In this document: positions 1 to 43,911 of the stretch, piece by piece
Layout of the letters: every line of letters starts with the position of its first letter
Numbering within the stretch: the first letter of the stretch is position 1
From: Ceratodon purpureus
Lineage: Eukaryota; Streptophyta; Bryopsida; Pseudoditrichales; Ditrichaceae
Direction of reading: 5' to 3'
Length of the DNA: 64,000 nt
NCBI GenBank assembly: GCA_014871385.1
Contig: CM026424.1
Location: 14,784,892-14,848,891 of the forward strand
Made by a program: the position numbers and the translations under genes
The notes under the pieces: generated by a model
Database searches by the model: none
The model's input: only the letters and a program-made list of their open reading frames with translations
Told to the model about the DNA's origin: nothing

Positions 1-83
1 TTGAGGGTGATTTGTTGCGGAGGTGGTGATGGGTTGGGGGTTTCAATATAATGGGCAGGAGGAAGTGATACGACGGCATCAAG

Positions 84-15665: not shown

Positions 15666-15802
15666 AGGACGACAGAATGTTCGTCCCAGTTCCGTCGTGA
15701 TTCCGTCGTGGTGACGTGCTAATCGCGTGGTAAGAGCGTCATTAGGCGTCACTAAGAAGGCCAGAGAGAGAGCACAAGACTCGTCTCTCTGCCTGCGAAG
15801 GG

Positions 15803-15975
<173 letters not shown>

Positions 15976-16908
15976 GACAAGAAGCTTTTTCTCTGCAGCG
16001 ACTGCGGGAGGGAGGGAGCTCCACTGCACTGTTGCCGTAGGACTCCGTTATGGCGCCTCCACCCCCGCTACTCCTACTCCTACTCCGCCTTCTCCACTCG
16101 TAGATTCCCTTCCACCACGCACTGCACTGCACTGCCCTGCCCACCACGCGCGCTCCGGAACCTCTGTAAGGCCACTCTCGCAACCCTCACGGACCGCCCT
16201 CGCATCGCTTAGATTGCTTAATTCAGGTCGCTTCCTGTAGCGGATGTTGCTTTTTGCTAGCGATGGAGATGGTGATGTTGTTGTCGTAGTGGAGGTAGTT
16301 GAGAGGTTAGCGAGAGTTTGGACTGGTGCTGGCGGATAATTCTGTGCGATTGCGTTGGCGATGGTGCGAGGTTTTTAGATTTTTGGAGTTTTGGATTTTT
16401 GGATTTCTTGTCTGTTTAGGCGGGGAGAGGATTTGCAATTGGAGGAATGAGGAGGATGCGCGCAGCTTGGGGGATGAGTCGAGGTTTTGTGGCGGAGTTT
16501 TTTGTAGGTTTTTTTTCGTTGAGGTTGTGAATCGCACGTGCATTTTTGGTCTCGGGAGTGGATTTGGAGTTGGAGGTAGGGCAGGGAGAGATCGCGGTTT
16601 GGCGACTTGCGCGGATTGTGGTGCAATTCGGTGCTTGCATTTGTTAGTTTCGTCGGAATTGGTCTGGTGTCGCTTTAGCTTCGTTTTTCGATTGTTAGGA
16701 TTGGCGTTGGTAAACTTAGGGTGCGGAGTGTTCGGAGAGATGAGAGAAGTGGAGGTTGGATTCGAGAGCTGGATGAGATGGTTTGACTAATTCGATGGCT
16801 TAATGCCAGATTGAGGTGGCGAGAGGAGCTAGGGATCAACCTGGATGGTGAGAGGAAGGTTTTATCTGTGCATCGCCGCTACGAGCAGCTGTAACGGTGA
16901 GCGCGGTA

Positions 16909-19900
16909 ATGGCGACCGGAGTGTCAACGAGTGAAGGCGATTTAGAGGCGTTATTTACCACTGATATTGTGAATAATGTCGTGAAGCTGAAGAACGTTAT
17001 CCTCAACGAGTTTCATGTCCTTCGCAAATTCTCATTCATCAGGTGCAGTTCCTCCTGACCTCCTGCATTATTAATCTGGTGTGTTTCTGTCTTCACAAAG
17101 AATTTTCTCTGTGCATATGGGCGTTCAGCAGTGAGGTTAAGATAACTGTGCTGAACGAAGCAGATTTTTTTCCATCTTGGACTGGTCGTGTTGACTGAGT
17201 GCAACTTTATGTTCTCATCTGCCCGATGATGTTTGTTGGAGCAGTTTGTGCAACGAAACCCTTTGCGTGAAGCTCGAGAGCGACCTGGGATCGCAAATTG
17301 GATTTCAGATCGACAACGAAAATTTTGACCATGAGAATGTTGCGGAGCAGACAGTGGCGACATTCTTAGCGGATGACTTCAACCAAGTACGTAATATTTC
17401 CTATGACCTTTTACAGAGGAGTTATATGTGGATTTGATCCTGAAGCATCTGCTTTCAATTGAGTCCTAACTGCTTGCCCTGTTGTGATAAAGATATCTCG
17501 CCGGTGCATTGGTTTCAGTCATTTAGTTCCACCTTGGTCGTCATGCAAAACTTGGAAGCCAGACTTGGAAGTTGACCTAGGATTTATCGTAGGACAGTAT
17601 TTTAGTATTGTACCAGCATTTCAACCATGCAGCTGTATGGAGAATGTATCTGTAGTAGTTATAACGCGTGCTTTTTTTATCAAAAACACTGTCAGTCAGA
17701 CGGTTGGTTTTTCTTTTCTAGATTGGACAATGAAGATGTAAGTACTTTGCGAATGCGTTGTGCGGCTTGTATTTTAACTGATAACACTTGTTTAATGCAT
17801 TTTTCGATATGTTTTGCAGTTGTTCAATACTGTGAACCTTGTCACTGAGGTTATACTGCAGCCAAGGCAAGTCCAGCAAGTGATACTGACTTTTCGGCCT
17901 TCCGAACCTCTAAATGGATCGTCGGAAGAGAAGGATGAGAAGGATATTAACGAGGTTCGCAACATCTGTCTTTACCTCATTCATTTAAAGATGATTGTTT
18001 TGTCACGTGTAACTCCAGTTCAACGAGGTTCGAAATATCAAGCCTCACTTTATTTTACTGAGCTGACATTCTTCATGCTCTGTACAGATTTCAGGGCAAA
18101 ATGCGTCAAGAGTGCCTTTGAAGCGTCTTAGTGCAAACGTGACTGAAATTTTTCAGGTCAATGGGAAGCTTAGTTTTTCAGCCAGTGTTATTGGTGACAG
18201 CGTGGAAACTAGGCATGGGGAGGCCACCAGAATTAATCACCAAAACATCACTGTACAGTTCAACTCCTCAGTGTGTCGGTCAGTCTTGAAGACAGATGTG
18301 TCCGAAATCGTATTTGAGGACTGTGTTCCAGGAGGCGTTTTCGTCAAAGACTTTAGCGTTTGGAATCTCTCCGAAATTCCTGGGTCGTTTGAACTTAATG
18401 TGAAATGTGGGCCATCTGAGAAACCGGTATGCTTGTTGTCAACAGAGCTTCTTGCACTTCCTGTTCCTATGTCCTTACGCTTGTTTGAATTAGTTAGATA
18501 CTAGGTTTGTTGAATGGTATTGGAGACTTTTGCCATGAATTGCAGGATCGTACATGCTTCCACTGAGATTTTCTTTGTTACCATTGGAAAGGCATGGATG
18601 GAGGCTGGATACACAGGATATATAGTATTGAGCCATATTCATGCAGCTAGTCTGTTTACATCCATGTCTGTTTTTTCGTTTTCTTTTCGTATTTATTTTT
18701 TGTGGGGGCTACAGGTATTGGAGCTTACAGATTATGACACTGGCCTTCCAATTTCGAGAGGGGATATCAAGAGTTTTTCTCATCGTCGTATTCGTGTTAC
18801 ATACAAACCAAAAGATGTTGGGGATTTCACCTATATTGTACACCTGCAGAATAACTTTGATGAGAGAAATTCCAAATCTGTTCCCTTTCGATGCATAGTA
18901 AGCTTTTAAAACTCTTACCTTACTTTTTAAAACTTTGACTGGATCTATTTACAAGAACCTGCGTTGTAATTATTGATATTTTCGTTTTAGAAATATTGTC
19001 AGCATTTCTTGTGATGTATGCAGTAGCATTTACTTGATTGGGTTTTCGAATATGTTTTAGTAAATGTGTTTTCGTTTCTATTTCAGGTTAATCCTGAGCA
19101 AAGACAGGAAGGGCTCCTGGTTACTGGTGTCAGAGAAGATGGAGTTCTAGACTTTGGTGACTGCTACTCAGGAAATGGAACGTGCCAACTTTTAACGCTT
19201 AGAAACGTTACTCAGGAGGTACTATCTACTCTGAACAGTTTGTAGCTTTGGGAATGCTGGGATGAAGGTAGTGCTTGAAGACGCTTACCTGGAGTTTTGA
19301 AATGCAGGCATTGGTTGTCAACTTGAGCTCAGATCATGCTTCTGGCGATAAAGTCACCTTTTATCGGCAGACTGAGTTGGACCTTCTGTCGGCAACTTCA
19401 AAAGCTCGACTCAAGGATGTGGTTAGCCCTGTTGAAGACGATGTTGTCAGTTTGGAGGGGGCTCACAAGGAGACACTTGTTCTTGACAAATTGGTACGTT
19501 TTCAAATTGCTAACTGGTTTCAACCTTATTAGAGGCATGAGCACTTTCTTATACCACCACAGTGTGATGCTTTTTGGTTATTGTTTGGTGATTGGTTTCT
19601 GTTGGGGGGATTAGACTTACAATTCTTCTACCACTGTGTTAGACCCGTCCGTTTGAACAATTCAAGAATCATGAGACTTTCCGTACGAATGTTTGCCTCA
19701 TTTTCCGATACTTGACGATTCATGGGCCTTGAATGCTTTCTGATACTATTACAGACCTTTGTCTTAAATGTTTTTTCTTCTAACTTTTAAGCATTAGGCA
19801 GACGTTTTCAGTTTGTTTCGTTATGTGATTTATAAATACACTTCGCAGATAACATTACTTACCTCTTTAGATTTATGATGCGCAGGAGAGTCCCACTGGT

Positions 19901-22900
19901 CCGAGTGTCATCGTAAACAAGAAGAGTAAGGTTGACTTGATTACCTTAGGAAAGGGTGAAGAGAAAAATCTACTCGTCTGGTTTTTCCCGGCAGGTGCAT
20001 CGGATGAATTGAAGGCCGCAAGGTTGCAAAGACGTAACTTTCGACTGTCGCTGAAGTGTGCCGAAAAGAAAGGGTATAGCAAGCAGCGCTTCTCCAAGAT
20101 CATTCAGGTATCTGTGTTCTTGCATCCATCTTGGTGAAATGTATTATTTCAGACTGCTGATTACTGCTGAAATTTATTATCCTCTTACTGGAAGTACCTG
20201 ATTATTAGATTTGGTTTTCACAAACAAATGCGAGGAGATTTGCCAAGGACGTCATTTACTAGCTAGATATTCACTATTTCTGAACCTTATGATTGCAGTG
20301 CAAAGCTCAAATATGCACTTCTATTGTGAAGCTGTCGACTCTGGAGCTCAATTTCGGTGATTGCAATGTTGGCTCAACGAAAGCATCAAGTGTGCAGATT
20401 CATAATCTCTCTGATCTTCCAGCACTCATCACCCCATATGTTACATCGACTATACTCAGTATAAAAAGTCAGGCGGAGCGAGTATCTATTCCAGCTCGTC
20501 AGACACACAGTCTGGATATAGATCTTGTCCCTCTTAAGATCAATCATAAGTATAGAAAACAAATTCGAGTTGACAATCTTTTGAACAAGGAAAATAATCA
20601 GGTACTAGAGGTTCGAGCCAAAATAATGGACCGTCACCATGTTTTATTCCATTCTGTCTATTACAAATTGCAAACCCCGTCAGCGAGCAACTTTCTCATA
20701 TTTGACAGGTGATTTTGTCACAATATACCAGACTAGCTCTTTTTATGTCTTCTCAAGGATTTTACGTTTTCGTGTTTTAAACTTCATTGTTATGCGTGCT
20801 TTTGTTCACCTTCTTGGGTGAGGTAGGAGCGTACTGTATTGCTTTTTCCTGAATCTATTGGAAGTTTTCCTTTTTCTAATATTTACTTCCTGTTTTGGTT
20901 GTTTGCGAACCAGTGCGGTTGTCAATAACCCATGTGTGAAGATACTTACGGTTGAGAACATCACTGATAAAGAACTAATTCTGGATTTCAACACCAACAT
21001 GCCGGATGAACTGGGTATTTACACTTTACAAGATAATTCTTCATCAGAGTACGGAGACCTTGGTGTTGGCGATGTATGCAGTCTTTCTAGTGAAGCAAGC
21101 GAGGAAGAAATTCATGAGAATCGAAAGAGGTGTGTCGCGTACTTGATCACTTGGTTAGTTTTCAGATTTCGTGGAGCAAAAATGATTAAAGGATTTTGCT
21201 TTGTAGATTTGATGTCTTAAAGCTGAGTAATGATTAATTTTATATTATTCTGATTTTGATTGCAAAATCTCATCATTACAAGTTGAAACCGTTTCTCATA
21301 TGGGGTATGCGTAGTCAGCAGGGAATTCGTGGTAGCATAGTACTACTAGTCTAGACTGGTTTTGTTGAATGATCATGAGCTGATGAGACAGTTTGGGATC
21401 ATAGTATACACCCTAGTGAACAGGTCGTGATCTGCATCTTTATCATATACGCAGAGTGCTTTGGGCACTCGAGGATGTTTTTCATTACCGCGTATGGACT
21501 GTTATGTTATGAACTACTTGAAGCAGAGACTGAGACTGTTGTGTTGTTTTGTATTCTCAAGAGCTTATGCAGCATCTCTGAACAAGGAGAAAATTCTTGA
21601 AACGCTTGAAGAGTCTCAGCCTCGGTTAAGTAAAGCGATTGTTGATTCCGCTCCCTTTCCTTTGCAGCAGGGCCATTCGAAAACAGCGCCCATTAGAACT
21701 CCACTATCCTCTTCAGAGAAGAAGGGAAGAATGAGGTAAGGACTACAGATATTTTCTTGCTTTAATTTTGCTTAGAAACCTGCGACAACTGAAAGTTATT
21801 CTTGGATCTGAACTCTTAACGTGGCATGAAGGAGAATAGACGCTGTTGGGAAATATGATTTCTGTCGTGGTTACCGTCTTACCGGCCGGTGTAGCTGATT
21901 GCCGTGGTTTTGGGGGTTTATGATCCACTTAGTCAGTTCTCTTTGTAATCATTTCAGGATGTCGTTAGATCTCTCAACAAGTCCGCTTTCGACCAGTCTT
22001 TCAGGGCTTCAAAGTCTGGAGACTGGCTCTCTTGCTATTTCAGCAATCACTGATGATTCAACAAACGAGGTTGTAGCTGATGTAAAGTCATTTGAAGACA
22101 CAGATCAGAATGTCAAACCAGGAACGTTGAAGAGAGTACAAAGCGATGCTATGCTGAATGCCGCTGAGGAAGCCTCCAAAGTTCTTGGATCTTCCCGGAG
22201 AGGTTCCGACGATGACTATCTTGAAGAAGTCCTAACTCGGCTTGGTTGTGCAACGGCTTTAGACTGCTCCTTCATGGACGAGGATGCTGTGAAGAAGGTT
22301 TGTTCGTTCTTTGTGCTCAATATGACTTCTCTACATCTGGATTTTTGACTTTTTGCTCGTTCTGCTTTCTAGTTTACCCCTTATGTCCTCTCGTTAGTCA
22401 AGGGTCTAAAATCACGCTACCAGATGAATATGACGAGACTAGCTCAGATGGCTTACTGAATTCTGCACTTGCATGTTCTTGTTATATTCTGATTCTAACA
22501 GTATTAATTCCTATTGTAATGTTGGTTACAGTTCATTGATAATCATATCAGAGACAGAGAGCTTACCATGCACGCTCTAGAAGATGTTCCGCACACTTTG
22601 TTGCCTCTTGGAAAGCTTGAGCTCTTGCCAGGTGAATCAAGAAACTTGTATGTTATACTCGTTTTAAATGGACAGTCCCACTCTGATCTGCAAGGGCGGC
22701 TGCAAAAGCTTGAAGCGAAGGTGGGTGTTTATTTGAGAATGTCGAAGAGTGGGCGTGTTACTTGAAAGTGTTTTTATTCATCATTTTTACCTGGATGGCA
22801 TCCTATCTATGTTCTTGATCAACACGCTATGCAACCTTTGAAAGTTTACAGCTATGCAGCACAAGTCTCAGCAAAAGTGGATGTCTACAATTCTAGTCTG

Positions 22901-25900
22901 ATGCACTGCTTCTTTCATATTTAATAAGGTGGATGGCAACCTATTGGCAGGTTACCATTCAAATGATTGAGTATGATAAGGAGCGCCAGGAACATCTGGA
23001 GCCTGGCTTTTTGGAGCCGATAGTTGATGATGACCTCTTGACTCGAGAAATTCCTGTAGAGATTAACGTACGTGTTATCGTTCTCTCCTATTTGCTTTGA
23101 ATTAGTTTGACAGTTTATGTATTTGTATCTGATTTGAGGCAACGATGTCCCATTGGCTCTTGGGGGAAGGTGTAGTTAATAACACGAGGCAGGATCCATT
23201 TAGTGAGATACGTTCTGTTTATCAAATTACTCATGTCTCATGCTTTTGTGTGCGTTTATTTAGGTCTGTCGGGCTGTTCTGTCACTTGCTCAAAAGAATA
23301 TCAGTTTTGGTAAACTGCTCACCAACGAGCATCGAGCAAAAACATTGGTTCTAAACAATGTATCAGATGTTCCTCTCCTGTATAAGATCAAGAAAACAGG
23401 TATAACTCTTGAGACTGGCATTTCCTTGAGCTTGTTCGTTCTGTTTAGAGTAGTGCATGGCTTTACCTACTCGGAATCACTAGATATATGGATATTTTCA
23501 ACAGTATATCTTAGCAGCTTAAAATCACGATTAGACACCTCTGTTGTCTCCCGTGGTCCCTTCAGCTTCGAAGATGAGCTGTTGGCAAGGTTTGAAGTTA
23601 AACATGCAATTTTATCTCCGCCTTTTTGATGAGCTTGAACAAGTCTGTTTATCATGTCCTGTGATGAACTACAGGTTCTATTGCTTCAGGCGATTTACAT
23701 ATCATCGATGGACGCAGTGGGGTTCTACAACCCCACAGCAGTCAAGAAGTGAACTTCGTGTTCCAGCCTTCGTTGAGTGGGTCTTTCCACGAGACGCTTA
23801 TTGTTAGCAATGTGTATGACCCAAACAATGACCAAGTGGTGAACTTAAAAGCCACAATCAGTCGAGCTGAAACTTTCTGGCTCAAGAGCAGCAGCATCGA
23901 CTTTGGGGCAGTTATTTCTGGCCAGTGGTCTTCCTCACAGAGTTTTGTGTTTTCTAATACCAGTAAACAGTCAAGAACCTTTATGTTGAGGGAAGTTGAT
24001 TGTGGAGGTGAGGAAAAGGGTTCCCCTGCCCCTGGGCCTGCCACAGATAATTTGCATTCCACATGTGCACTATCTGCTCTGATTAAGTTAAGATTTGTTC
24101 TCGAGCCAAAGAGACACACTGTCGAAAGTCACGTGCGACCCGAGCAAGAAGCTATTGAAGCTTTAGAGAGAAAGGCTTTAGCTTACGAGCGCAAAGGCAA
24201 AGCCGATAAAGTAGCTAAAATCAGAAAAGAGATTGAAGAGCTTAAGGTGAAAGAAAATGGGAATGGAAAGAATGACAAACACGAACAAGTGGTAGCTGGC
24301 GAAGCCGTGGATCTTGTTTCTGAGACTAAAGGAATGCAGAATCCCTTGAATTTCGGAAGCGTTGACGTGTCTGCTACTGTAGAGAAGGAGAAGGATTTAA
24401 CTTCTAAAAACTCAGACGGCTTCATTAGCTTTACTTTGAAGCCCAGTGAATCTCAGGTACGTGGTTAGAAGCCCATATGATGTCCGTGTGTCCATTTTCA
24501 TGCTGTTTATTACTTATTGAAAGCTTTTCCAATCAAAATGTGGTACCCATTTGCCTTATTACTAATTCTATTCATCTTGCTGTGAAACATTCATCTGGAG
24601 CTATAGTTTATCCAGTTTCATCCAGAAAAATACAGTTTAGTAATTTTAATGATTTAGAATTTAGTTGGAGCTGATGAATATGGATTAATGCCAAAACACT
24701 ACTTGCATTTTGTCTTATGTTTGAGCACGTTCGATTGTTGCCATGCCACTAATTGGCGTAAGTAATTGCTTTCTAGGTCGTACTTGTGAGCTGTTATGCA
24801 TGGATGCCAGAGTCTACGCCCTTGGGAGAACAAGTTAAAGGGGCTTTTCTCGCTTATGAAAGCAAAAATCAGGTACTATTTTCGAATTTTTTGGTAGATC
24901 TCAGTTACACGTATTTTTTTAAAGATGTCTTTAATAATCACGATTTCATTTAAATATCATTATCATGTGTTCCATTTGTTCGTATTGATTATTTGATTAG
25001 CTTATTTTGTTTTCCTGTTTTTGCCGAAGATGGTTTTGGTAGTGCCGTTTCAGGCATTTGGACCTCATGTCGTTCAGTATTATTCCATAAGCTTTCATTG
25101 CTTAACCATTCTTGAACACTTAACTGATTGACTTAAGTGTGGACCTTTTCTCTGAACTCAACTGATTAACTCAAAACTACAGAGGAAAGCCTTGATCCTT
25201 GGGAATGGAATATTGACAGAGAAACCGACAACGGACAGTTTCAGACCAAATATGATGATCGAGTAGATGTTCAGGTATTCTTTCTGATATTTTGGTTTGG
25301 TGATGGGGCAGGATGTAGTGAAACGTGTTGAGTTTGAAGCAACTGTTTGCTCTGACAACACCTATCATGACGACCATGCTTTGAGCTCAATGAAACAGGT
25401 ACACACAACAATTTTTGGTTTGTTTTATAATACGGTTCTGTTAAAATTTTACTCTGTAGGATAGCATCATGGGGAATTTGAATTCCTTATTTTTTTCTCA
25501 AATCATATGAATTTTAAATCCAAGTACAAGGTTATATGCGTGCATCTTTATTGATGTGAGATTGACTTTTTATATCTCTGAACGTGCTCAGAGTAACAGG
25601 ACTGGAGAGGACTCTCCAAGTTCGATACCCTCATTGTCTCCGACTATTACACCTGATAGCTCTGTTCCAACCTCTCCTATTGGAGGTCAAACTCCGCAAA
25701 TGCTTTCTGGTCATCAGGCATCACGAAAGTTATCTGCATCAAGTTTGTTCGCTTCTATTGAGCCTGTAGACCTGAACTTTGATGGCGGTATCAGTGCCTT
25801 GGCTGCAACTTCTTGCAAGCTACCACTTGATCCTGAGCATCCACAAACTGTGATGAGGATGTCGAACTCAGAAGTTCCATTCCCTGTCAGTGTTGGAAAG

Positions 25901-28900
25901 GCTGTAAATGTGGGAACTAGTGATGTTTTGGCTGGAGGTAGCCTTTCTAGCCCTAAAGCTCTTTTCAAAGTAGACCTTCTGCAACCCGGAAAACTCGAGT
26001 CGGTCTCGAAAGAGGATCAACGAACACATGAAGCCAAGCAAACATCCTTAGCAGCGCAGAACAAAACTTCTGTAGACAAAGAACTTGCTGGGGAAGTTGT
26101 TCTGGAAGACCATGCTGGTGGAGATATTATGGAGGCAAACTATCTGTTGAGATCACTGTGCTCGTACGATATTTGGATTTCCTTTGTTCTTGATTGGCCT
26201 GGGGCTCGTGATCTTCAGTTGTGGGTTAGGGATCTTGGTGTCGATCATATTAGCAACATACGCACAGGTATTGCCGAATCTGCTCTGCCCCTACTTAGAG
26301 CAGAAAGCGGAAGCTGGAGTGGGCCTGCTTCTCCTGGTCAACCAATACAACTTCAATGGCAACAGCTAGAGAGCCAGGCTTTAGAAAAGGATTCGCCTGA
26401 GAAACCGAAGTTAATGACCTCCGCGTGTCTTAAAGGAGGCATGGGTCAGTGGATTACACTTCGTATGCTTGATGAAGGTTCTCAAAGACATGTTTCTCCA
26501 GTAAGAAAGGATGCTAATACTTTGACTGTGGAGTCTTCTGCATTGGTCAACAATGGAATTTCTGGTCAAGGATTTGGAATGGGAACTCTAGCAATGCAAG
26601 CTCAACCGAATGGAGCACCAATTCAATTGCTGCTTCGTGCCAAGCAGCTGGAGAGATATCTGAAGGTGACACCCACAGACATAGTATTTCCAGAGTCAGA
26701 CCTCTCGACTGTTTTGATGGAGGAGATTACGATTTCAAACAAATCGAGATTTGAAGTCGACTTTGAGACAAAGGTGTTAGGTGGCTCCAAAATGCTTGAC
26801 AAATCACTCGAGATGTTGAGGTCTGGCAAAACTGGAACATTAGCTGCTCTGCCATCAGCAGAGGAAGGTCGATCTTTCTCTCTGGTTGAACCAGTAGTTT
26901 CCGTAACCCCTGCTTTCGGACGAATAGAGGGGCATGGATCTTTGACTGCCAAAGTAGTCTGCCAACCCGTGAAATCTGGAAAACAGGCATACACAATTCA
27001 TTTCCGAAGTTCGCATTGTACTAGCGAAAGTAGAGTAAACGTCACGATGGCTCCTCGTAAAGTCCATCGGCTGCGATTGCCGGATGTTCCGTCTGGATGT
27101 GTTCTGGATATGGGCTATTGTTTTATCAATGCCTCCGAAGGTGCAAAAGTGGTTCCCTTGAGACTTGAAAACCTTTTTGCCAAGCCTCTCTCTTTGGCAT
27201 TTCGATCGAACCTTACCAAGCAGGTGTACATCTCGCTGAATCCTACTGGTGATTCTCGGACAGATGAGATGCAGCTTCAGGGAGCTCAATCAGAGACTGT
27301 ATATTTGTGCTTGCGACCCGGTGGTGATGTTTCAGCTTACAAAAGCGGATGTTGCAGAGAGGTTATTGGTGGTATGAGGATCTCAGTGAAGTCGAAAGAT
27401 ACGCCTAGTAATTCTACCGATTCTCAAGAAGATTTTCAGGATGAGATGATGGTGAAGTTTAGGGCAATGGTAGGACAAAGCCTTCTTCAGGTGTCTACCT
27501 CACTGGTAGATCTTGGGCGTTTGGAAGAAGTCGGAGGATTTATATCAGGTTGCTTTGTAGTGTCCAATCCAAGTAATCAAATGCCTTTAGACTTTACATT
27601 ATCAGCTGGCCGGGCATCCTTATCTGTTGTGAGGGGCCGTCTAATCGGAAAGGAGGCTACTGCATCAAGAGGCAGTCAAGAGAAGTCTGAAATAGCTATA
27701 GAGTATTGCTTGCCAGTAACGGAGTATGGGCTTATTGAAGATCGTGTAGTCGTGCAGAACCTCTCTTGCCCGGGACAGAACGCTGAAGTGTTGCTGCGGG
27801 TATATGTGGATCGTGGTAGCCTTAAATCTCACATCCAACCTCCCGTGCGGCGCTTCCCATACTTAAGTCCAGAAATGGGGAGTGTTCTGTTGAATGAGAA
27901 CCTGCCATCAAATGATTCTCACAAACTTCCACTTTTAAGTTCAACGGACTTTTATGGTGAAAATGGTTCATTGCCGAGCAATCAACCTGGCATTGGCACT
28001 TCAACCAAGGATTTGGAGAAGACTTTGGATTTTGAAGAACTGTCACCCAGAAGGACATATTCATTACCTGCTACGAACTTGGAGCTTGAGGATTTTCAGG
28101 ATAGGCCCATTTTTGATGCAGGCAGGATTGTGGGTCCACTGCAAGACAACCACTATCTTGACATGGGGATTGTGTATATTTCTCTTGACTTTGGTGATAT
28201 TGAGGTGGAGAATGGCAATCTTTCTGAAAGCGGGGGGAAAGTTTCGGCTGAGTATTCTATATCCGATGTGTGTTCGTTCCAGTCTTCTCTGCTCCTCACA
28301 AATTCCTCAGACGAAGCACTTACTCTGCAACCTGTTAGTACACTGCCGTTGCGGGTTTTTGAGGAAAACCACAGTGTGTGTCAACGGTCCGATAAGTCAT
28401 TGGCAATGGCAGATATGAGATCAGGGCAAACCATCTGCTCTGCCACTTCTGGCATCACAACAGAGAGCACGAAGGAAGTACCTGGAAGTGCGTTTGCATG
28501 GAATCCATGTGGAAATAAATTTAGTATCCTGCCTGGGTCTGAGACTCGATTGCTGGTGGCTTGTGATGGGATTCAGCCTTTTTCATCTGTGGATGTATCT
28601 CATATGGGGAAGGGGCAGCTGTGTGCTTTTGAGGGACTTCTGGCATTTTGCAAATCAAATGTCACCGAGGACGCAGAGGATTTAAAATCTGAGGTTACAG
28701 TCCTGCAAGAACAGTGGGACTTTTCTCAGTTCCTAGAGCTTTTAACTGTTAAAGGCTCTATGTGCGTGTCGTATGGGGAGGTTGAGACGAAGGAGATAAA
28801 TCTTGGTAAAGTTGGTGATGCGAACGGATGGCAAGATCTTGAGTTCGATATAGAAGTTCATAATAGCAGCGATGCGGAAATGGTGTTTCAGATCATTGAT

Positions 28901-31900
28901 GCTCCTGATATTTTTTCATTCTCATATCAAGGATTGGAGTTACTTGCTGGAGCAAGCGGTTTTACTGTTTGTCATCTGCCTGCAAGAGGAACAGATTCTA
29001 TCCAGGTCATTTTGCACACATCAAAGCTGGAGCAGAGGAAGGAGGCTAGGACATGGTCGTGGAAGCTATGCTTGGTGAACTGCAATAATAGAAAAAACAT
29101 TATGGAAGTTTCTGTTGTTGCAGAAATGACCGTACGTAACCTTCGATTTGTGGGTTTAACCGAGTCAACACTAGTATTGCCACCTCTTACTGTGCCAGTA
29201 CAACCCAAGGCGCTACCTTGCAGCAGGAGATTTTCGGTGAGTTTTAGGCGGAAAATAAATCATAATATTCTTCTCTCAAGCTTTTGTGCATTTATTCCTG
29301 AGAATGGTTGTGGTTAGTAAGGTCAATGTTAAATCGACAGACTTACCTTCTAACAGAATACAAATTTTTATATCTGTCATGCGGCATGGTTTTCCTTGAT
29401 TGTATGATTAAAATTATCGTGCAATTCTTTTTAGGTGGAAAATCTGTCAACTGGGCCTATTGGTGTAGCACTGGAGTTGCATCAAGTTGAAGACACCGAG
29501 TCGCTGGTGAGTTCAATGTTCATTTATGTGGGCTTTTATCTTTCGGAGTCTACGGAAGGTTCTAGACCTTTGTATAGATGAATTACGTCTACGGTAAGAT
29601 GTATTCATGTAATATTCTTTCCATTTCATGATCTTTTCATAAGTCATCTTGGCCGAAGTAGTAAGATTGACTGAATACAAGGGTTTGTTATAACATTGAC
29701 GTTGATGCATAATAGAGTTCCTCTTGAATCATTAACATTGTGTTCGATCGACATGTTTTGAATGCTTGCGGCGTGTGATTCTATAGGTAATGCTGGAGGT
29801 CACGTCAAAGGCAAGCAATTCCTCGATTACAGAACTGACTTTGCAACCTGGAGAAACGGTAGAGCTCCAGGTAGGAGCTCGGCTGGTGTCCGACTTCATA
29901 CCTCATGGTCTTAGAGGAGATGACGCTGAAAGGCACAGCAGCGGATTTACGATCAGCCCAAGAAGTGCACTTGAGAGCGATGATAAATCGTTTACGACAT
30001 CATCATTTACGAACGTAGAGCAACAAGGATCCTCAGAGAAATCCTGGGTTGCCGTCTCAAATTCTGATCCAAGTAGTTTTAATGCCTCGAGGCCTGCAAA
30101 TGAGAAGAATAACACCGATGCTACAGGTTTTCGAGAAGATCCTACTTTTAGTAATGAAGAAAATTTATCAGATACAACGACGATGGTGTGCTTAGGGCAC
30201 TTGTATTTGTATTCGTCGCCTTTGCCTGACTGCATTGATATTTTTGGGACCCTGATTCAAGGTCCAATGATTGGTGTTTCTCCCAGCACCTTGCAATGCC
30301 AGGTGAGCTCCACCCTCTCTTTGAGCAACATTCATCTGGTTTTGAGAACTTAACCTCATTAACTAGAGTCTTTTATGCTGTAAAACTTTCTAACTGTCGG
30401 AGTCGCCAGTTTGTTTCCAAGTTCGTTCCCCTCTAGCCACCTTGTTGCTAGTTAAGCTCCTTCCATGCAACCTGTTTAGAAATGCGACAGTAGTTCTAGA
30501 TTTTTTGTAGCCGACGAGCTGACTTGTGCGTGAATTACATGTGGTCCAGGCAAAGTTGTCAGAGAGAGATACTGTCAATCATGCAGATGATGTTGGAAAC
30601 GGGATCGATGCAACTCATGTTAATTCGAGCGCGAAGGTGGAATACGACATTACAAGTATGCGGCTTGAATCATGGGAAGGATGGCACGATAAGTCTAATT
30701 TTTCACAGAAGATAGTCGTTCAAAACTATCTTGCTTTTGACCAATTGCAACTGAAAGCCTGGGCTCAACAAACATTGTCGGATGACTTTGGTACCCAATT
30801 ACGTTTCTTGGAGGTCCATCCTGTGGAGGCGATGGTTCCTCCTGGTGGCAGCATTGACATTATTGTGAGATTCCTTTCATGGTCAGGTGAAATGTATGAG
30901 GCTTTCTTGAGGCAGGTCTCTGAAGGCCTCGGTACTGCTGAATATCTCACGGCAGCCGTATTTATTCAAGATGTTGAAGAGCGTGATAATCGTCAAAGGG
31001 TCGATGTCCGCATTACCCCACCAATTTTTCTACAGAATTCACTTTCTCAGGCTGCAGGTCCAGATTTAGAAACTCAAAATTGCTCATCTAGCAATGCTTG
31101 TGAGTCTGTTAGTAAGGACCTTGTTAAAAATGTGAATCCTTCGAAACAAAGGTTGCCAGTTCTTGGTCTACGGGGTTGTACAGCTGTTAACGGAAGCCCA
31201 GTATGTTACGAGTTCAACCTAGGTCAGCAGAATATTTCATCGGGTGGTCATCGACACTGGACTCTAACTCTTGTTGGGGATGAAGAACGGCCGATTTCAT
31301 ATCGACTTTGTACCATCAGTGATGGGGACGCAAGCTGGCTTAGTATCAGCAGCTCAGCAGGGGTTGTAGAAGCTTTGCAGCAGAACACTGTAAAGCTTTC
31401 CTTTTCAACTAAAGCGATGGGTGAGTTGCTTCATTGGTTTAGGTTGCGAAGTGATTTCTCTCTGTCGTTCTTTCTTCGCAATGTTCCAAGTGGTGTATGA
31501 GCAACTTTCAACTTTTTTTTGTTAGTTGTAGCAAGAAGAGCCTTGCTCTCTTGTCTGTTTGGTAGAATATTATTTTCTGGAATTCCATTAAAGTGGGTCT
31601 CATATGTAACTATTAGAAAAAAAACGAAGTCAACTGACAACGTATGTGAGAATTTTAAGAAGCCTTACTGTACTACCTCTCTGATTTTAGTCTACTTCAG
31701 AGGTGTAATTGATATTAACATGAAAATTTGATTTGCAGGGGTATATTCTACCTATCTTGTTGTGGAGAATTTCGACAATCCAGCAGATTTAAAAACAGTG
31801 CACCTTAGTATGGAGGTTGTAGCTCTTAAAAATGCTCGTCCAGAGGCCCCATTGGTGCCCTTCTTTTATGTTCTGGTGCAAGGAGATAGGTACAGTAAGA

Positions 31901-34900
31901 ACTGACATTGCTCTTTCATCGCTTTGCCTGGTCCATTTCAATCTGTCTTATTTGGCAGACCCAGTTCTTCTTGAGAATTTAGTTCTTATTTGTTGAAGAA
32001 CAGTACCTTCGGTCTCTGGAAAAGAATGTGAAGTTTGTGAAGTTTTGACATGTATAAAGTGCTTCTCACCGTATTTGGCCTTTTTTCAATATTTCAGGAC
32101 AGAAGGTGCTGCGATAGATATGGCGGAGATTTACTACAATTTCTGGTATCGGAATCGGTCTTTCGTCATTGTGAATGAAGCCTCGGTTGCCATGGAGTTT
32201 CTCCTTTCTTCCACCTTAGATCACAATGACTCTACAGAGCTTAACTTCTCTCTTGAAAATACATCTTTGAAGCGCTTCAGCTCAGTGACTGTGGATGCTA
32301 AAAGCAGGCAAGACCAAGCGCCTTTTCTTGAATTAAATGCTGAGTTGTGTAGAAAATTGCGATTAAAAACTGAGTGGTTCTGATATAAAAATATTCTTGA
32401 CCATGTAGGTTGAAAGTTGCGATGACTGCTGTCAATATGAAATACTGATAAAAGCAATAATGGTTGCCCTAATAGGTTGTCATATTGATTTCTAAGAATT
32501 GCTTAATTTGAATGGATTTAGCACTATATTGTTGACGTTTTGAACGACTGAAAACTTTGAAGTTTATAACTTTTGAACGACTGACAATTGACGACTGTTC
32601 TCATGCAGTATCCGGCTTTGGATCCACTTTTGCATTGCTCCACCAAAGGAGGAACCCCTTATGGAAGACACGTTTGATGAATTGTCTGCCACGATTTTCG
32701 TCAATTGTCGACTTGTGAAGGCGAGTCCTCTGATTCCCTTCTGTGCATGTGTCATTGCAATCCGAACTCTATTATTTTGGAGAGAAGTTACAATGTCCTC
32801 AACAGTTCTGGTATTCGCGGCTGTGTGTTCTAAAACTTCATGTCTCAATTTGTTTCTCACGAATCATAACCCTGTTCTCGTAATATAATTGCAGGATTAC
32901 CAACGTTGTATACCGTTTCACGCAAGGTGCCGGTACCCTCAGATTGGAATCTCTTCGACTGATGTGGTATTCTCGACAAGAAGGCATGGTAGTGGCTATA
33001 CTTTCACGGACGTGACCAGCGATGTAGGGGTATGTTCAACAGCGAATGGAGGGTCTTCCAACACTGATGCCCCTGTCAATTCTCCTTTTATTGAAAACGA
33101 GGTCTTGCTGGGCTCGACTGGAATCCAGCATTTGGGAAATGTTCCTAGCGAATTGCCTTTAGAAACTTCTGCGACGGACAATGAAACTCCAGTTGAGTCC
33201 GAGGTTCTCTATGATGTTCTGCGTTCCTCACAGCAATCGAATCCTGCTCTCAGAGTGCACCGGGATGATGACCTTGTTTTAACGCCTACTTTCCAGATCC
33301 TTACTTTAAGAAACTTGTATCTTCACCGGAAGCTAGAATATGTTGTCAAGAACGATTCACTTTTCTTTAAGGTAGACGTTCCTGGATTGCAAGAGATATC
33401 AAGTGCTGTTTCTCCAGGTTTGCACTTAGATGTGCATACACTGTCTACGAAAATGCATGAGAAAGCGGGTCACGATATCGTGGTTCGACCAAATCTTGAT
33501 ACATTGCGAGAAAATTGGAAGATGGTAATGAAGCAGAAGTACATCGAAGAGCATCTTACCATCTATAACCGATCCAATCCTCATGAGAAGTATACTGTGA
33601 GCTTGCGTCTTACAGCTGGACACCTCCGCAATTTCTTTGCTGCTTCTGGGTTAGTTTGCTTATCCTAATTTGTCCTTTCAAGTTGTCTCTATTTGCCTGT
33701 GTTCTGGCTCTTACTCAACGTGTAGCACCTTCAGAGATGTGTCAACATGGTGGAGAGGCACTAGTATACTTTATCGTTGACTCTACTATACTCTGATCAT
33801 GAACAGCTTGAACTTTACGAATTTTTACGACCGTGACAGGTAGTCTCTTTTGTGTCTAGTTACTGGTTGTGCTATCTGAGCTTACGAAATGCACGGGTTG
33901 GACTTTTGCAGGCCCAAAAAATCATATACCTTTGAGCGCTTGGAACTCGCGATCACTTCCTTTCTCAGCACATTTTATTCCTTAATGAATCGGCTGTTGA
34001 TGGGTCTTCATGAAAAGTCAAGCATGGGATCGAGGTTGGATCTGCAGATGTCTGCACATAGAAAGGATTTCTCTGGTCCAAAGAGTGGTAATAGCAAAGA
34101 GACTGGCTTGGCATCCGGAAACCTGGTGAAGCAAGGAAGCTGGAGCATGCAGAATCAGGATGCATTTCAAGAATTTGAAAAGTGCTTAGAGGCTTTCTCA
34201 ATGAGAGGCGAGGGCTCGCAACAACATGACTTCCTTTTCTTTGATCTGCAGTACCTTACAGGTGGGTTTCGTTTTCTGGGTTTCGGTTGCAGAATTTTTT
34301 TGGCCACTGCCTTCACAAGTTGGGGAGTATTGTCGGTAGAATTTCTTTCTGTTTTAATCTGCTCGAGTAGTGATGTTATCTTCTTAACAATGTAGGGGGC
34401 ATTGTAGGCTATGGCGTTATTGCCTTCCTGTCTGACTTAAATATTCTGTACGCAATGGTGGGTGTAGATGAGCTTGTGTTCTACAGCTTGAAGGAGCGTT
34501 GGAGCAAAGGCGGAGCCACTTTAGAGTTATCAACAGTGAAGCTTGCTAAGCTTTTATATTGCGCCCTTTATCGCTGCCAGGTAACGATTGATATGCTTCA
34601 CTTTGGGAGCTTCCTTACGTTTTCTACCAAACTTTTTTTCACCTGATCTGTGAACCATTGATGTTTTTGATTTTTGAGTTTGGCGTTGCTTGATCTGTCA
34701 CATTCACTTCCCCTTTTGTGTAAAAGTTGGCTGTTATCCACGTCAATAATGTCTTTGCCTCCAAAAAGGTTGTGCAGTTTATGGGGTTTTAGCGAGATTT
34801 TATCAGGAAAAAAGAAATGAAATGTTACAATGCCTGTTGTTTATTAATTAATGCGCTGGGTTGTAACAGATATTCCAGTTGTGTTTGGAGAGCTGCCAAT

Positions 34901-35217
34901 CCTTCACTGCGCTTGCTACCCAGGTTTTAGCTGAAGATTCCATAGATGGTGCGTTGGACATGACGAGAACGTCTTCTGGACAGACCTCTGCAAGCACTGG
35001 TTCCAAAAACGAGGGACAAAAACACCCTCTCGGCAAACTTGTACCTATCCCACCGTTGCATTGTTTCAAATTTATTGAGAATTGGACCGGACAGTTGAGG
35101 CATTTTTTGTCCTTTTTCCCTGACACAAGGGATGATATTAGCTCTCTTCGAGACCTGAATCAACAATTGCAGGAGATATTAGTTTCGTGTAGGATCGCTT
35201 TAGACCAATATTCATGA
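16909..35217 (+). CDS. Giant multi-ASH/MSP-like repeat protein, about 3,774 residues
   Basis: Thirty exons join in consistent phase: 16909-17042, 17245-17386, 17820-17954, 18088-18426, 18715-18897, 19087-19218, 19308-19493, 19886-20107, 20299-20708, 20914-21129, 21562-21735, 21958-22297, 22532-22720, 22951-23067, 23264-23399, 23675-24456, 24777-24872, 25185-25274 (doubtful), 25312-25398, 25592-29236, 29435-29506, 29787-30302, 30550-31420, 31739-31889, 32098-32307, 32609-32720, 32895-33649, 33912-34261, 34396-34580, 34870-35217. Repeated modules have the ASH/PapD-like pattern of an FG strand, a conserved N, then a long strand: LDFGDCYSGN (about 330), LNFGDCNVGSTKASS (505), ISFGKLLTNEHRAK (985), IDFGAVISGQW (1090), DIVFPESDLSTV (1730), VDLGRLEEVGG (2009), INLGKVGD (2439) and FNLGQQNISSGG (3003). 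A charged helix lies near 1150-1210, and the C-terminal 180 residues are helical. No signal peptide or membrane segment is evident. ASH proteins of this size usually serve cilia or centrosomes (HYDIN- or CFAP47-like), which would suit a plant with swimming sperm, but I cannot assign the family. Confidence 0.82.
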
Positions 35218-35762: not shown

Positions 35763-38700
35763 CTACTCCAAAAGATTGAGCAGTTGCTTTGCCTTACGTT
35801 TACACCGTTCGGTGGAATTCTCGTCTCTAAGAAGAAATGACAAGGGACTAACTGCTCCACAATGAAACGCTGCCTCTATGAAACCAGGGTCTTCGGTGCA
35901 GAGCTTGCACAGGAGTGAAGCTGCAAGCTCCTTTCCTTTGAAAGATCCGCAGGTGATGAAATCTACCAACATGGCAGTAGGCTCCATGCTAGCGATGTCA
36001 AGGAGACCCTCCTTTAGCAGTGAAAGGTTCGTCAGAATAGACAGAGTTATGTCGTCCAGCTCGGTGATAGACTGGTTACGCACAATCTCCATCAGAAGGC
36101 TGGTGAGACCGGCTTGAAGTGCACGCTTCTTGTTGCCATCCTGGAAGCTCACGAGGTTGCAGAGCGCGTTGGCTGCGTCTTTCTTGCCTTGGCGAGTTCC
36201 ACTTCGCAGGAGCTCCACCAGTGCAGGAATTGCCCCCGTGTTGCCAATGGAGATCTTGTTCTCGTTGTCGTATGAAAGGCATTGGATTGCTGCTGCCGCG
36301 TTTTCACGAGCCTCTGTGCTCTGCCCCAGCTTGACAACATGGACGATGTCGTCTATTGCCCCTGCCACAAGAGAAATCACAACTCCCGGTTAGTTTTCTG
36401 GCAACTCGGTTTGAGTTTGGGTATCAACTTTAGGATTAAGGTGAGATCTATTGGAACTTATAACATGGATTTTTTGAAAAATGAGTACTGCCGTGACAGA
36501 CTGGTGTTTTTGTAAGCAAATGAGGGCAAGTGTATAATGTATATGTGTGTACCTGCTCTCATAATGAGGCCTCTGTTGTTTTGATGCAGGGACAAGTTCA
36601 TTAATGCGGTGATGGCGTGCTCTTGAGTCTCCTTATCGGGCGATCGTAGAAGGTTGATCAGGAAAGGTATGCCTCCTTGTTCTGCAATACGAACTCGATT
36701 TTCTTTGTTCACCTTTGCGAAGTATCGTATGGTTTTGGCAGCATCCCGATGTACCTTTGTGCTCCGGCTGGATAACTTGGTGATTAGCTCGTTTATAAGC
36801 GTGGAGTCATCAACCTGCCCAGTGAAGCAGTTGGCAGAATTCTTCGTTAGCCAAGTCTTCAGAACTAGTGGCAGTAGATAAAGTCGCCTTATTGTAATTT
36901 TCTCTACATGCAGTTTCGTATACGTTGATAGCAACCGTCTATAATCAGTGACAAAACTTGAACTAAGTGCCTGAACTTACCTTCTCAACTTGGTCGGAGT
37001 GGCGTTTGTGTATAATGTGAGAGTCAGAGACGAATGGTGGGCCTGTACTGCTCTGAGGAGCATCCTTACTCTTTCCTGGCATCGATGTTGTTGAATGTGA
37101 ATCCGACTTCATTGCCAAATTCTGTCAAAAAATTAGTCACTCGGTTTGTTAACTGACAGACTGCTTTGAAATAATACGTAATGCATTCATGAAGCTCATA
37201 TTCCATAACCAATGCGTGACACACGATTTCTGTGACTGGCATCAAGCAGGACTTTCATTTCTTATATTCCTAGCTTTTTCTTAGACAAACATTATGCCTC
37301 TCTCTGGTCAGTTTTAGGAATGTGGTTTGAACAGCAAACAGAAATAATATTGACGTGGACTATCTCAGGTCTGGAGGCCTTACCTTATCCTCGTGAACGA
37401 CGGCATTGCGTTGCCTAACAGCAGACCTTTTGCTGCACATTCCGCGGGCATAATCGGTGAAGGGAGGATTTACAAATGGAGCTTGAAATCTAGAAGAATC
37501 CCCTCTCGTCAATCTGTTTCTCACACTTTCAAGTCTGCAGCAGATGTCCACAAGTAGAGGTCGTTTTCTATAATCCCTCGCCCAGCAATCCCTAACAATG
37601 GAACCCAGCTCCTCTGGACAATCAGAAGGCAACTGGGGTCTCATATTATTGAGAATCGCCTCGTTCAGCTGAGAGGCAGGCATTCCTTCAAATGGTTTCT
37701 TCCCCGTAAGAATATGGGAAGCAATAACAGCAAAGCTGTACACGTCGCCCTTAATTGCAAACTTGGCACTTCTTCCGTCTTGAGAGAAAGCCTCTGGTGC
37801 TCTGTATACTGTCTTTCTAACACCAGGTCGAGAGCTTGTACCAGCTCCTGAGCTGGTCTTCAGAAGGCCAAAATCAGCCAACTTCACATGCAGATAGTCA
37901 AGAAGATACGGCGAATTGTGTTGGTTTACGAGAATATTTGAAGGCTGGAGATCTCGGTGTGCGACATCATGGTCATGAAGGTAACACAAACCGTTGGCGA
38001 TTTGGATCAGGATATCAACTGCGACAGGAAGTGAAAAAGGAACTCCTCTCCCACTCTCCACCTGCTCTTGAATCACGTCCTGAAGGCTCATCTCCATGAG
38101 TTCCATTGCAAGATAGCACTCACGACTATCATCGTCGCTCAGCTCGCAGTGGAAGAATTTGACGATGTTGGGGTGATTTAACGTCGGCAGAGTGGTGGCC
38201 TCTGTCGTGTACTTGGTGACGTTCCATTCCCCATACTTGAAGACCTTCTTTGCGCAAGGCATGCCGAGCCATGTCGTTCTGAAGACCGCACCTCTGATGA
38301 CATGGGAGTCACCCCAGAAATCCAGAAGGAAGTTGTCCCATTCGATTCCAAGGTCAGAGTATCTCCCTCTGCCTTCGTTGTTCTGCTGGAGAACGGCGTG
38401 CAATCTCTCTAGCAGTTGTAATGCCAGGCGTCTGCTCTGGATGAGCCAGTCATTCCAGTGCTTTGGTTTTGCCAATACCAGGTCCTTGAGTCGGCCATAC
38501 AGCTTTTCTTGGTCCTTGCGAATCTCGGTTGCGGTTGGAGGTGAGAACGCTGAAGACTGGCGGAGATCCTCAATCTCAAAGCTAGACTTCTCCCTAGCTT
38601 GCTCGTAGATCTCGTCGTAACATAACCCTGTTTCAACGAGTATTTCACGAAATGCTTCTTCGTTGTTGATTTGCAACGCAGCTGCATGGCACCAGTTTGC

Positions 38701-42325: not shown

Positions 42326-42489
42326 AAGCCCCTCCAAAACCACGCCCCAAAGCCCAAAGCCCAAAGCCCAGGGTTTAAGGGCAAGGGTTTAAGCAGCGCC
42401 AAGGCAGCATTTGCTCAAGTTTGCCCAAGGACATAGCATTTGCATTTGCAATTGCAATTGGATTTGGAGTTGTTGCCAATTTGGTGGCG

Positions 42490-43911
42490 ATGGAGGATGC
42501 AGCAGTGGACAGCCTGGTGCTGGCGCTGCACGGCGTGGAGGCCGTCAAGTTCGGCAGCTTCAAGCTCAAGAGCGGCATCACCTCCCCGATCTACATCGAC
42601 CTGCGCGTCATCGTCTCCTACCCTGCGCTTCTGCAGCAAGTCGCGGACTCCGTGTGGGCGACGGTCGCGGGAGTAGAGCACGACGTCATCTGCGGGGTGC
42701 CGTACACGGCGCTCCCGATCGCCACCGCGATCTCGCTCAAGCACGGCGTCCCCATGGTGATGCGGCGCAAGGAGGTGAAGGATTACGGCACCAAGAAGGC
42801 GATCGAGGGTTTCTTCGAGCCCGGGCAGCGGTGCTTGATCATCGAGGATTTGGTGACGAGCGGGGCGTCCGTGCTGGAGACCGTGGAGCCGCTCGTGGCG
42901 GCCGGGCTGCGCGTTGCGGAGGTCGTCGTGTTGATTGATCGGGAGCAGGGCGGGCCGCAGACGCTGGAGCGGCATGGATTGCGGTTGCATGCGGCGTTGA
43001 AGCTCACGCGGATCGTGGAGGTTTTGGTTAGGTTTGGGAAGCTGACGCGGGAGGTGGCGGACTCGGTGGAGAGGTTTCTGCGGGAGAATCAGACGTCGGT
43101 GAGTGTGCCGCAGGGTTTAGGGATGGTGCGGCGGTTGCCTTACGGGGAGAGGGCGGGGTTGTCGAAGAATGTGACCGGGAGGAGGTTGTTTGAGTTGATG
43201 GAGCGGAAGCAGAGTAATTTGTCGGTTGCGGCGGATGTGAGTACGGCGAGGGAGTTGCTGGCGCTTGCGGATGCGGTCGGGCCGGATATTTGTGTGTTGA
43301 AGACGCATGTGGATATTCTGCCGGATTTTACATCGGATTTTGGGAGTAAGCTTCGGGAGATTGCTGATAGACATGACTTTTTGATCTTTGAGGATCGGAA
43401 GTTTGCGGATATTGGTAATACGGTGACCATGCAGTATGAGGGCGGGGTTTATCGGATTGTGGAGTGGGCGGACATCACGAATGCGCATGTGGTGCCTGGA
43501 GCTGGCATTGTGGATGGTTTGAAATTGAAGGGGCTTCCGAAGGGACGTGGGCTGTTGCTCCTCGCGGAGATGAGCTCGAAAGGGACGTTAGCCAAGGGGG
43601 AGTACACTCAGGCGGCTGCTAAGATTGCAGCGGAGCATCCGGAATTTGTTATTGGATTCATTTCAACTAATCCCGCGGCGTGGGTGGGGGGGCCGGGAAG
43701 CCCTGCATTGATTCATATGACTCCTGGCGTGCAGATGAGCGCTGGGGGAGATTCTCTTGGCCAGCAGTATAATACTCCTAGCTCAGTGATTGGGGAGAGA
43801 GGCAGTGATATCATCATTGTGGGACGTGGTATCATCAAGGCTGCGGACCCTGCTGCTGCAGCGAAGGAATATCGCAAGGCGGGGTGGACAGCGTACGAGG
43901 AAAGCTTGTGA
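42490..43911 (+). CDS. UMPS: Uridine 5'-monophosphate synthase (bifunctional)
   Basis: The protein has 473 residues, the usual plant UMPS length. Residues 1-190 are orotate phosphoribosyltransferase: [13 protein letters not shown], the loop lysines of [13 protein letters not shown], and the PRPP motif [13 protein letters not shown] (115-127). Residues about 215-473 are orotidylate decarboxylase: LKTHVDI around K271 and the catalytic [12 protein letters not shown] with D302, K304 and D307, then TNAHVVPG and the phosphate-binding IIVGRGI. It converts orotate plus PRPP to OMP and then to UMP, the last two steps of de novo pyrimidine synthesis. The start at 42490 is the first in-frame ATG. The frame opens earlier, at 42421, but without an ATG. 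There are no introns. The 5' half is markedly GC-rich compared with its flanks. Confidence 0.97.

What the first reader, a model, noticed from the sequence alone, without database searches (positions are those of the whole stretch)
16909..35217. A 3.8-kilodalton-residue-scale ASH-repeat protein of unknown family
By eye, 30 exons join without a phase break into about 3,774 residues with at least eight ASH/MSP-like modules. I cannot match it to HYDIN, CFAP47, CFAP65 or TMEM131. In plants with swimming sperm such proteins could be ciliary or centriolar; in non-flagellate lineages they would be unexpected. It is the best candidate for something undescribed in the window.
Basis: partly seen in the sequence, partly recalled or inferred. 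Interest (0 to 1): 0.75.

Follow-up and report, generated by a model that had tools for sequence, protein, structure and literature searches.

The report
Giant ASH-repeat protein gene in moss
A plant genome, most likely a moss, carries one very large gene for a protein built from a chain of ASH modules, the building block of scaffolds inside swimming-sperm tails; it matches none of the named members that could be tested and probably serves the moss sperm's flagella, but that has not been shown.

Summary
On the + strand, 29 exons (16909-35217) join in phase into one frame of 3,749 aa, about 413 kDa; 26 of 28 introns are GT-AG, two GC-AG. Pfam finds ASH/Ig-like domains above curated cut-offs: CFAP65_4th 3e-16, HYDIN/VesB/CFA65 Ig 5e-13, ASH 6e-12. 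A profile trained partly on this protein sees eight modules at E<0.01, against none in 41 decoys. The C-terminal ~300 aa match nothing credible.

The same genome holds separate, better matches to CFAP65, HYDIN, FAP81/DLEC1 and TMEM131. The window protein's best PDB match is HYDIN at E=0.013. So it is most likely none of those four. CFAP47 and CFAP74 domain families were not found in the genome, but no control rang, so a diverged CFAP47 or CFAP74 stays open.

Best reading: a long ASH-chain scaffold of the moss sperm flagellum, an unnamed member of a known kind. Expression, localisation and distribution across plants could not be tested, and no structure was predicted. The large partial copy on contig C11 is broken and truncated.

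The parts
16909..35217 (+). whole gene, 29 exons, 3749 aa (ATG 16909, TGA ends 35217)
18283..18897 (+). ASH-like module, aa 203-311 (exons 4-5, intron inside)
   Evidence: seed; the best PDB hit, HYDIN E 0.013, covers aa 171-253
19132..19924 (+). ASH-like module, aa 327-435 (exons 6-8, introns inside)
   Evidence: ASH 4.5e-4 in slice, below cut-off; seed
20326..20625 (+). ASH-like module, aa 506-605 (exon 9)
   Evidence: PF24798 8.7e-8; ASH 6.8e-5 in slice, below cut-off; seed
23276..23859 (+). best ASH module, aa 983-1085 (exons 15-16, intron inside)
   Evidence: PF24507 3e-16, PF22544 5e-13, PF15780 6e-12 for the whole protein, best stretch here; PF22544 5.4e-8 in slice; seed
23677..24456 (+). 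exon 16: rest of the best module, a partial ASH-like start (aa 1095-1128) and a charged, probably helical stretch about aa 1175-1225
   Evidence: domain E 0.0033 for 1095-1128; helical stretch judged by eye
25592..29236 (+). giant exon 19, 1215 aa, continuous; contains ASH-like module aa 1702-1832 (26660-27052) and several others judged by eye
31198..31818 (+). ASH-like module, aa 2973-3073 (exons 22-23, intron inside)
   Evidence: (PF24507 2.3e-4 in slice, below cut-off)
32111..32654 (+). ASH-like module, aa 3102-3182 (exons 24-25, GC-AG intron inside)
   Evidence: splice choice
33912..35214 (+). C-terminal region aa 3456-3749 (exons 27-29), no known domain, looks helical by eye
   Evidence: no credible match

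Best explanation
It is a gene (the only complete copy found) for a ~413-kDa elongated scaffold: a string of roughly 8 to 16 ASH (PapD/Ig-like) beta-sandwich modules with a charged helical insert and a C-terminal region of its own. By analogy with HYDIN and CFAP47, successive ASH modules would each bind a partner or a microtubule protofilament, so that the chain ties parts of the flagellar axoneme together. In a moss the flagellated cell is the biflagellate sperm, so the most likely site is the sperm axoneme, in the central apparatus or its projections. Shown here: the gene, the frame, ASH modules, and that other loci in the genome match HYDIN, CFAP65, FAP81/DLEC1 and TMEM131 better. Inferred: moss origin, sperm expression, axonemal location, the tethering mechanism.
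For: Open 29-exon model. Pfam ASH-type families named after flagellar proteins (CFAP65, HYDIN, CFAP74) are the top hits. Eight modules at E<0.01 versus 0 of 41 decoys, with a partly self-trained profile. The genome keeps central-apparatus genes: CFAP65 (E 4.5e-54), HYDIN (E 2.3e-21), FAP81 (E 1e-12). HYDIN (33 ASH domains) and CFAP47 (20 ASH domains) are long chains that link the C1 and C2 microtubules (PMC12297659, abstract and passages read). No convincing transmembrane segment.
Against: No expression, proteome or localisation data. ASH domains also occur outside cilia (TMEM131; OCRL, recalled). The protein has no significant match to any PDB chain, although central-apparatus chains are in that library, so if axonemal it is lineage-specific or too diverged to see. 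The signal per module is weak: one of ten slices passes a Pfam cut-off. No structure prediction could be run.
Confidence: 0.45

Rival explanations
1. It is a scaffold of the basal bodies or of the plant-specific parts of the sperm locomotory apparatus (lamellar strip, spline) rather than of the axoneme itself.
For: It has no significant match among PDB chains, while ORFs of axonemal genes of this genome match them strongly. Moss (Physcomitrium) spermatids build a lamellar strip and a microtubular spline with two basal bodies (PMC8128824, passages). Cep192-type ASH models also score, below cut-off.
Against: The top Pfam families are named after axonemal proteins. No other centriolar domain was found.
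Confidence: 0.25
2. It is a strongly diverged orthologue of CFAP47 or CFAP74 that sequence profiles miss.
For: Size (3,749 aa) and many ASH modules recall CFAP47 (20 ASH). Neither the CFAP47 family (PF24529) nor CFAP74 domain 2 (PF24770) was found in the genome, so a slot may be free.
Against: No calponin-homology domain and no PF24529 hit in the protein. No PDB hit to the FAP74 chain, which is in the library; a CFAP47 chain was not seen in the library. The two genome-wide negatives had no control that rang, and such scans miss domains split by introns: the PF22544 scan missed the window gene itself.
Confidence: 0.15
3. It is not flagellar: a cytoplasmic or secretory-pathway ASH protein, for example distantly related to TMEM131.
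For: A TMEM131-type model scores weakly at the N terminus (TMEM131L_4 6.7e-4 in a slice, below cut-off).
Against: No convincing membrane segment (highest 19-residue hydropathy 1.6); no signal peptide by eye. TMEM131 has its own locus with TMEM131_like_N 4.6e-14.
Confidence: 0.13
4. Several genes or a pseudogene wrongly joined.
For: Exons were joined by hand without transcripts; one AAG acceptor and two GC donors are needed.
Against: 3,749 codons without a stop, 28 junctions in phase, higher total coding score than the other five frames, modules that continue across introns. The near-identical C11 copy shows what a decayed copy looks like: frameshift and deletions.
Confidence: 0.02

Closest known systems
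HYDIN (hydrocephalus-inducing protein)
   Same: Very long chain of ASH modules; the best PDB match of the window protein (7n6g/7sqc chains, E 0.013-0.02; a HYDIN domain entry, 2e6j, at 0.86).
   Different: A separate HYDIN locus on C11 near 5.27-5.29 Mb: one 253-aa ORF of it matches HYDIN at 2.3e-21. No adenylate-kinase-like domain in the window protein.
CFAP65 / FAP65
   Same: Shares the Ig_CFAP65_4th type of ASH domain (3e-16).
   Different: No hit to PF24291 or PF24816. The better CFAP65 candidate is on C5:1749375-1754890 (PDB CFAP65 E 4.5e-54; PF24291 4.3e-48, PF24816 2.1e-31). PF24816 also hits the HYDIN locus at 5.9e-7.
CFAP47 / FAP47 (bridge between C1 and C2)
   Same: Similar size (recalled) and many ASH modules (20 in CFAP47).
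   Different: No calponin-homology domain and no CFAP47 (PF24529) hit; no PDB match, though a CFAP47 chain was not seen in that library.
DLEC1 / CFAP81 / FAP81
   Same: ASH repeats.
   Different: A separate locus on C4 near 9.90 Mb: one 382-aa ORF matches FAP81 at 1e-12, a HYDIN chain at 3.4e-6 and a DLEC1 chain at 0.13.
CFAP74 / FAP74
   Same: CFAP74_4th-type domain at aa 509-595 (8.7e-8).
   Different: That model also hits a HYDIN-locus ORF (2.4e-13), so it is not specific; no PDB match to FAP74.
TMEM131 / TMEM131L
   Same: Weak PapD/Ig similarity.
   Different: No convincing membrane segment; TMEM131 has its own locus on C1.

Membership tests
ASH/PapD-like repeat proteins (general kind) | Multiple ASH-type beta-sandwich modules | tested here: met
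   by sequence only, no structure
HYDIN | Best match in this genome to solved HYDIN chains | tested here: not met
   (E 0.013, whole protein) against (E 2.3e-21, a 253-aa ORF of another locus)
CFAP65 | CFAP65 Ig domain PF24291 and PDB CFAP65 match | tested here: not met
   absent; present at the C5 locus
DLEC1/CFAP81 | Match to solved FAP81/DLEC1 chains | tested here: not met
   no match; the C4:9.90-Mb locus matches FAP81
CFAP47 | CFAP47 domain PF24529 and calponin-homology domain among about 20 ASH modules | tested here: not met
   neither found; divergence not excluded
CFAP47 | Match to a solved CFAP47 chain | tested here: inconclusive
   no match, but a CFAP47 chain was not seen in that library in any call
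CFAP47 | A separate CFAP47 gene in the same genome | tested here: inconclusive
   no match, no control rang
CFAP74 | Match to solved FAP74 chain and CFAP74_2 domain | tested here: not met
   no match; PF24770 only E 0.43 over the whole protein and 0.083 in a slice
CFAP74 | A separate CFAP74 gene in the same genome | tested here: inconclusive
   no match, no control rang; PF24798 search did not complete
TMEM131 | TMEM131_like_N above cut-off and a transmembrane segment | tested here: not met
   PF12371 5.4e-5, 23.8 bits against cut-off 28.8; hydropathy; own locus
Flagellar protein | Antheridial or sperm expression, axonemal location, restriction to flagellated lineages | not testable with these tools
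   no plant transcript, proteome or plant genome collection

The most novel reading that the evidence does not exclude
Mosses have replaced, or so rebuilt that sequence no longer shows it, the CFAP47-type bridge of the flagellar central pair with this giant ASH-chain protein: a plant-lineage scaffold of the sperm axoneme not present in the central apparatus of green algae or mammals.
Probability: 0.1. Interest if true: 0.65.

Novelty: new member of a known kind. Interest (0 to 1): 0.4.

Why it matters
Plant sperm flagella are, to my knowledge, far less studied than those of algae and animals. A 3,749-residue ASH-chain protein that is none of the named chains for which a test was possible is a concrete candidate for a part specific to plant sperm, or for a missing orthologue. 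Knockouts in a model moss and cryo-tomography of moss sperm could test it directly.

Tried and rejected
Automatic splice prediction over-split the gene: 46 exons, some of zero length. It was replaced by a manual model. An alternative exon at 25183-25274 was dropped because one frame hits a TAG and the other needs a GAG acceptor; the exon at 25312-25398 fits phase and coding instead. One scan of viral contigs with exon 19 gave no relative. NCBIfam, given four single-exon pieces (exons 16, 19, 22, 26) and not the whole protein, gave only a sub-cut-off 'choice-of-anchor D' hit on one. PF07288, PF25158, PF17817, PF14669 and PF21634 hits in slices, and the UPF0134 and outer-membrane-receptor PDB hits, were dropped as chance level. 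Three further weak PF24507 matches in the genome (C10, C13, C6; E 0.18-0.48) were not followed up. Not used: the genome-contig scan, and the phage, plasmid and E. coli collections. Recalled, not tested: an unnamed PANTHER family of giant ASH proteins in algae and protists may include this protein.

Ten paper searches (listings with starts of abstracts seen) did not surface a description of a giant plant ASH protein in the open-access library. Most subscription papers are not held, and one sought moss flagella paper was not held. Of papers opened, only passages from term searches were seen: PMC4947347, PMC12297659 (with its abstract), PMC8128824, PMC10057591, PMC8000587, PMC5371999, PMC5406480, PMC9110296.

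Full report
The observation. I rebuilt the gene with splice sites and phase (after an automatic first pass). Twenty-nine exons from 16909 to 35217 on the + strand give 3,749 aa with one terminal stop. In frame there are no internal stops, against 185 and 276 in the other two forward frames of the same exons and 163, 139 and 188 in the reverse frames. Coding log-odds are 719 in frame, 107 and 172 in the other forward frames, and 307, 415 and 373 in the reverse frames; stops were left out of these sums and the scale was trained on this model, so the stop counts are the better evidence. Introns are AT-richer than exons (37.5% versus 45.0% GC), with a median of 232 nt; 18 are in phase 0, 3 in phase 1 and 7 in phase 2. 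Twenty-six of 28 introns are GT-AG. Two are GC-AG (after 32307 and after 32720), chosen because they keep both phase and an ASH strand pattern. The acceptor of exon 11 (AAG) is weak. No transcript was available, so single splice sites may be wrong, but the gene as a whole looks secure; exon 19 alone is a continuous 1,215 aa.

What the protein is made of. Pfam on the whole protein gives five families over their curated cut-offs: Ig_CFAP65_4th 3e-16, HYDIN/VesB/CFA65-like Ig 5e-13, ASH 6.3e-12, CFAP74_4th 8.7e-8 and CFAP65_7th 1.6e-6, best at aa 982-1082 and 509-595; twelve more were listed below cut-off at E up to 1. Ten overlapping slices of 374-450 aa, covering all 3,749 residues, place further, weaker ASH-like signals near aa 87-124, 331-373, 512-576, 1702-1738 and 2995-3054; only the slice at aa 751-1200 exceeds a cut-off on its own. 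A profile seeded with four segments of this protein and seven ASH segments from other genes of the same genome, then iterated six times, finds eight modules at domain E<0.01 in the window protein. None of 41 decoys (40 shuffles, one reversal) has one with the final profile; three decoy domains fall between 0.01 and 0.1, the best at 0.014. The profile contains the protein's own modules, so those E-values are optimistic: the three complete modules not in the seed (1702-1832, 2973-3073, 3102-3182) came in at 2.5-2.9 bits before retraining, and decoys were not tried at that stage. The partial one at 1095-1128 was never in the training set (E 0.0033). By eye there may be up to 16 modules. There is a charged, probably helical insert at about aa 1175-1225 (by eye). 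The C-terminal 300 residues have no credible match. The highest 19-residue hydropathy is 1.6, so a membrane segment is unlikely.

Is it a known family? The strongest test used the same genome as its own control. PF24507 and PF22544 searches of the 362-Mb genome show ASH genes at four other places. C5:1.75 Mb is CFAP65: a 591-aa ORF hits a PDB CFAP65 chain at 4.5e-54 and PF24291 at 4.3e-48. C11:5.27-5.29 Mb is HYDIN: a 253-aa ORF hits HYDIN at 2.3e-21; that all matches across these 22 kb belong to one gene is inferred. C4:9.90 Mb is probably FAP81/DLEC1: a 382-aa ORF hits FAP81 at 1e-12, a HYDIN chain at 3.4e-6 and a DLEC1 chain at 0.13. C1:13.87 Mb is TMEM131 (PF12371 4.6e-14). Against this, the full 3,749-aa window protein has four PDB hits at E up to 10: HYDIN at 0.013 and 0.02, a UPF0134 protein at 0.11 and a HYDIN domain at 0.86. 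Chains named FAP65, FAP74, FAP81, HYDIN, CFAP65 and DLEC1 are in that library (seen as hits; that they come from Chlamydomonas and mouse is recalled). So it is most likely not an orthologue of the four families with their own loci. These genome scans see a gene exon by exon: the PF22544 scan did not list the window gene at all, and PF24507 gave its exon 16 only 22.4 bits, below the cut-off. Other ASH genes can therefore be missed. For CFAP47 and CFAP74 the protein fails the Pfam tests, but no separate gene for either was found: PF24529 and PF24770 gave no match in the genome, with no control genome ringing, and PF24798 did not complete. A CFAP47 chain was not seen in the PDB library in any call. 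A strongly diverged CFAP47 or CFAP74 is therefore still open.

Which organism. The genome has 362.5 Mb in 151 contigs and one 110.5-Mb contig, C6. A review states that the sex chromosomes of the moss Ceratodon purpureus are each over 100 Mb, about 30% of a 360-Mb genome (PMC8000587, passages). C6 is 30.5% of this genome. That makes Ceratodon purpureus the likely source, by inference only. Bryophyte sperm carry two flagella (PMC5406480, passages; PMC8128824, passages on Physcomitrium).

How it probably works. HYDIN with 33 and CFAP47 with 20 ASH domains run as chains between the central microtubules, single ASH domains touching protofilaments and partners; loss of CFAP47 leaves a hollow bridge and poor sperm motility in mice (PMC12297659, abstract and passages). 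A protein of this build in a species that keeps central-apparatus genes most likely acts as a similar tether in sperm. Whether it sits in the axoneme or at the basal bodies and spline is not decided by the data. I put about 0.45 on the axoneme and 0.25 on the basal apparatus, with the other rivals as listed.

Copies. Exon 19 (1,215 aa), searched in the genome, hits itself and partial copies on C11, C13 and C6 (8 matches). Exons outside 16 and 19 were not searched genome-wide. C11 carries window 20768-25090 and 25087-32282 at 99.2-99.7% identity, split by a 38.1-kb insert with 39-bp terminal inverted repeats (37 of 39 matching) flanked by ATAA. That copy has a frameshift, a 9-bp deletion and a 458-bp deletion; within the flanks read (7 kb upstream, 14 kb downstream) it lacks exons 1-9 and everything after part of exon 24. 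Short fragments lie on C13, C6 (two), C2 (three) and C7. The window gene is thus the only complete copy found.

Limits. No plant or protist collection could be searched. Ten paper searches found no description, in a library that lacks most subscription journals. The finding is real and mildly surprising, but on present evidence it is a further member of a known kind of protein.

Noticed in passing
window 20768-32282; G000:C11:12163741-12212922 (L045, L046, L017, L018): A 99%-identical partial copy of this gene on another contig, truncated at both ends, with a frameshift and deletions; its right end runs directly into an exon that looks like SmD1 (recognised by eye). The 458-bp deletion is filled by a short inverted copy of nearby sequence.
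   Followed up: partly
G000:C11:12168055-12206176 (ends in L046, L017): A 38.1-kb insertion in that copy with 39-bp terminal inverted repeats (37/39) and a 4-bp ATAA duplication; near its right end a 706-aa ORF with DUF7869 (1.1e-43). It looks like a giant DNA transposon; about 10 kb of its middle was not read.
   Followed up: partly
window 26254-26789; C13:2864577-2870402 and C6:34246944, 34254797 (L021-L024): Fragments of exon 19 with the same left boundary and similar flank on C13 and twice on C6, as if captured by a repeat; the C13 fragment is split by a ~5.3-kb insert with a 6-nt overlap.
   Followed up: partly
window 23534-23996; C2:489417, 493033, 496662 and C7:348067 (L040-L043): A 97% identical fragment of intron 15/exon 16 in a ~3.6-kb tandem array on C2, next to an ABC-transporter membrane-domain ORF in L040 (PF00664 1.1e-15), and again on C7 (surroundings not examined): it looks like a chimeric captured-gene repeat.
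   Followed up: partly
window about 15740-15980: Long (GA/CT)n repeat upstream of the gene.
   Followed up: no
window 69-830, 35763-36976, 42379-43908: Neighbouring ORFs look like V-ATPase subunit D, an ARM-repeat protein and UMP synthase (recognised by eye, not searched).
   Followed up: no
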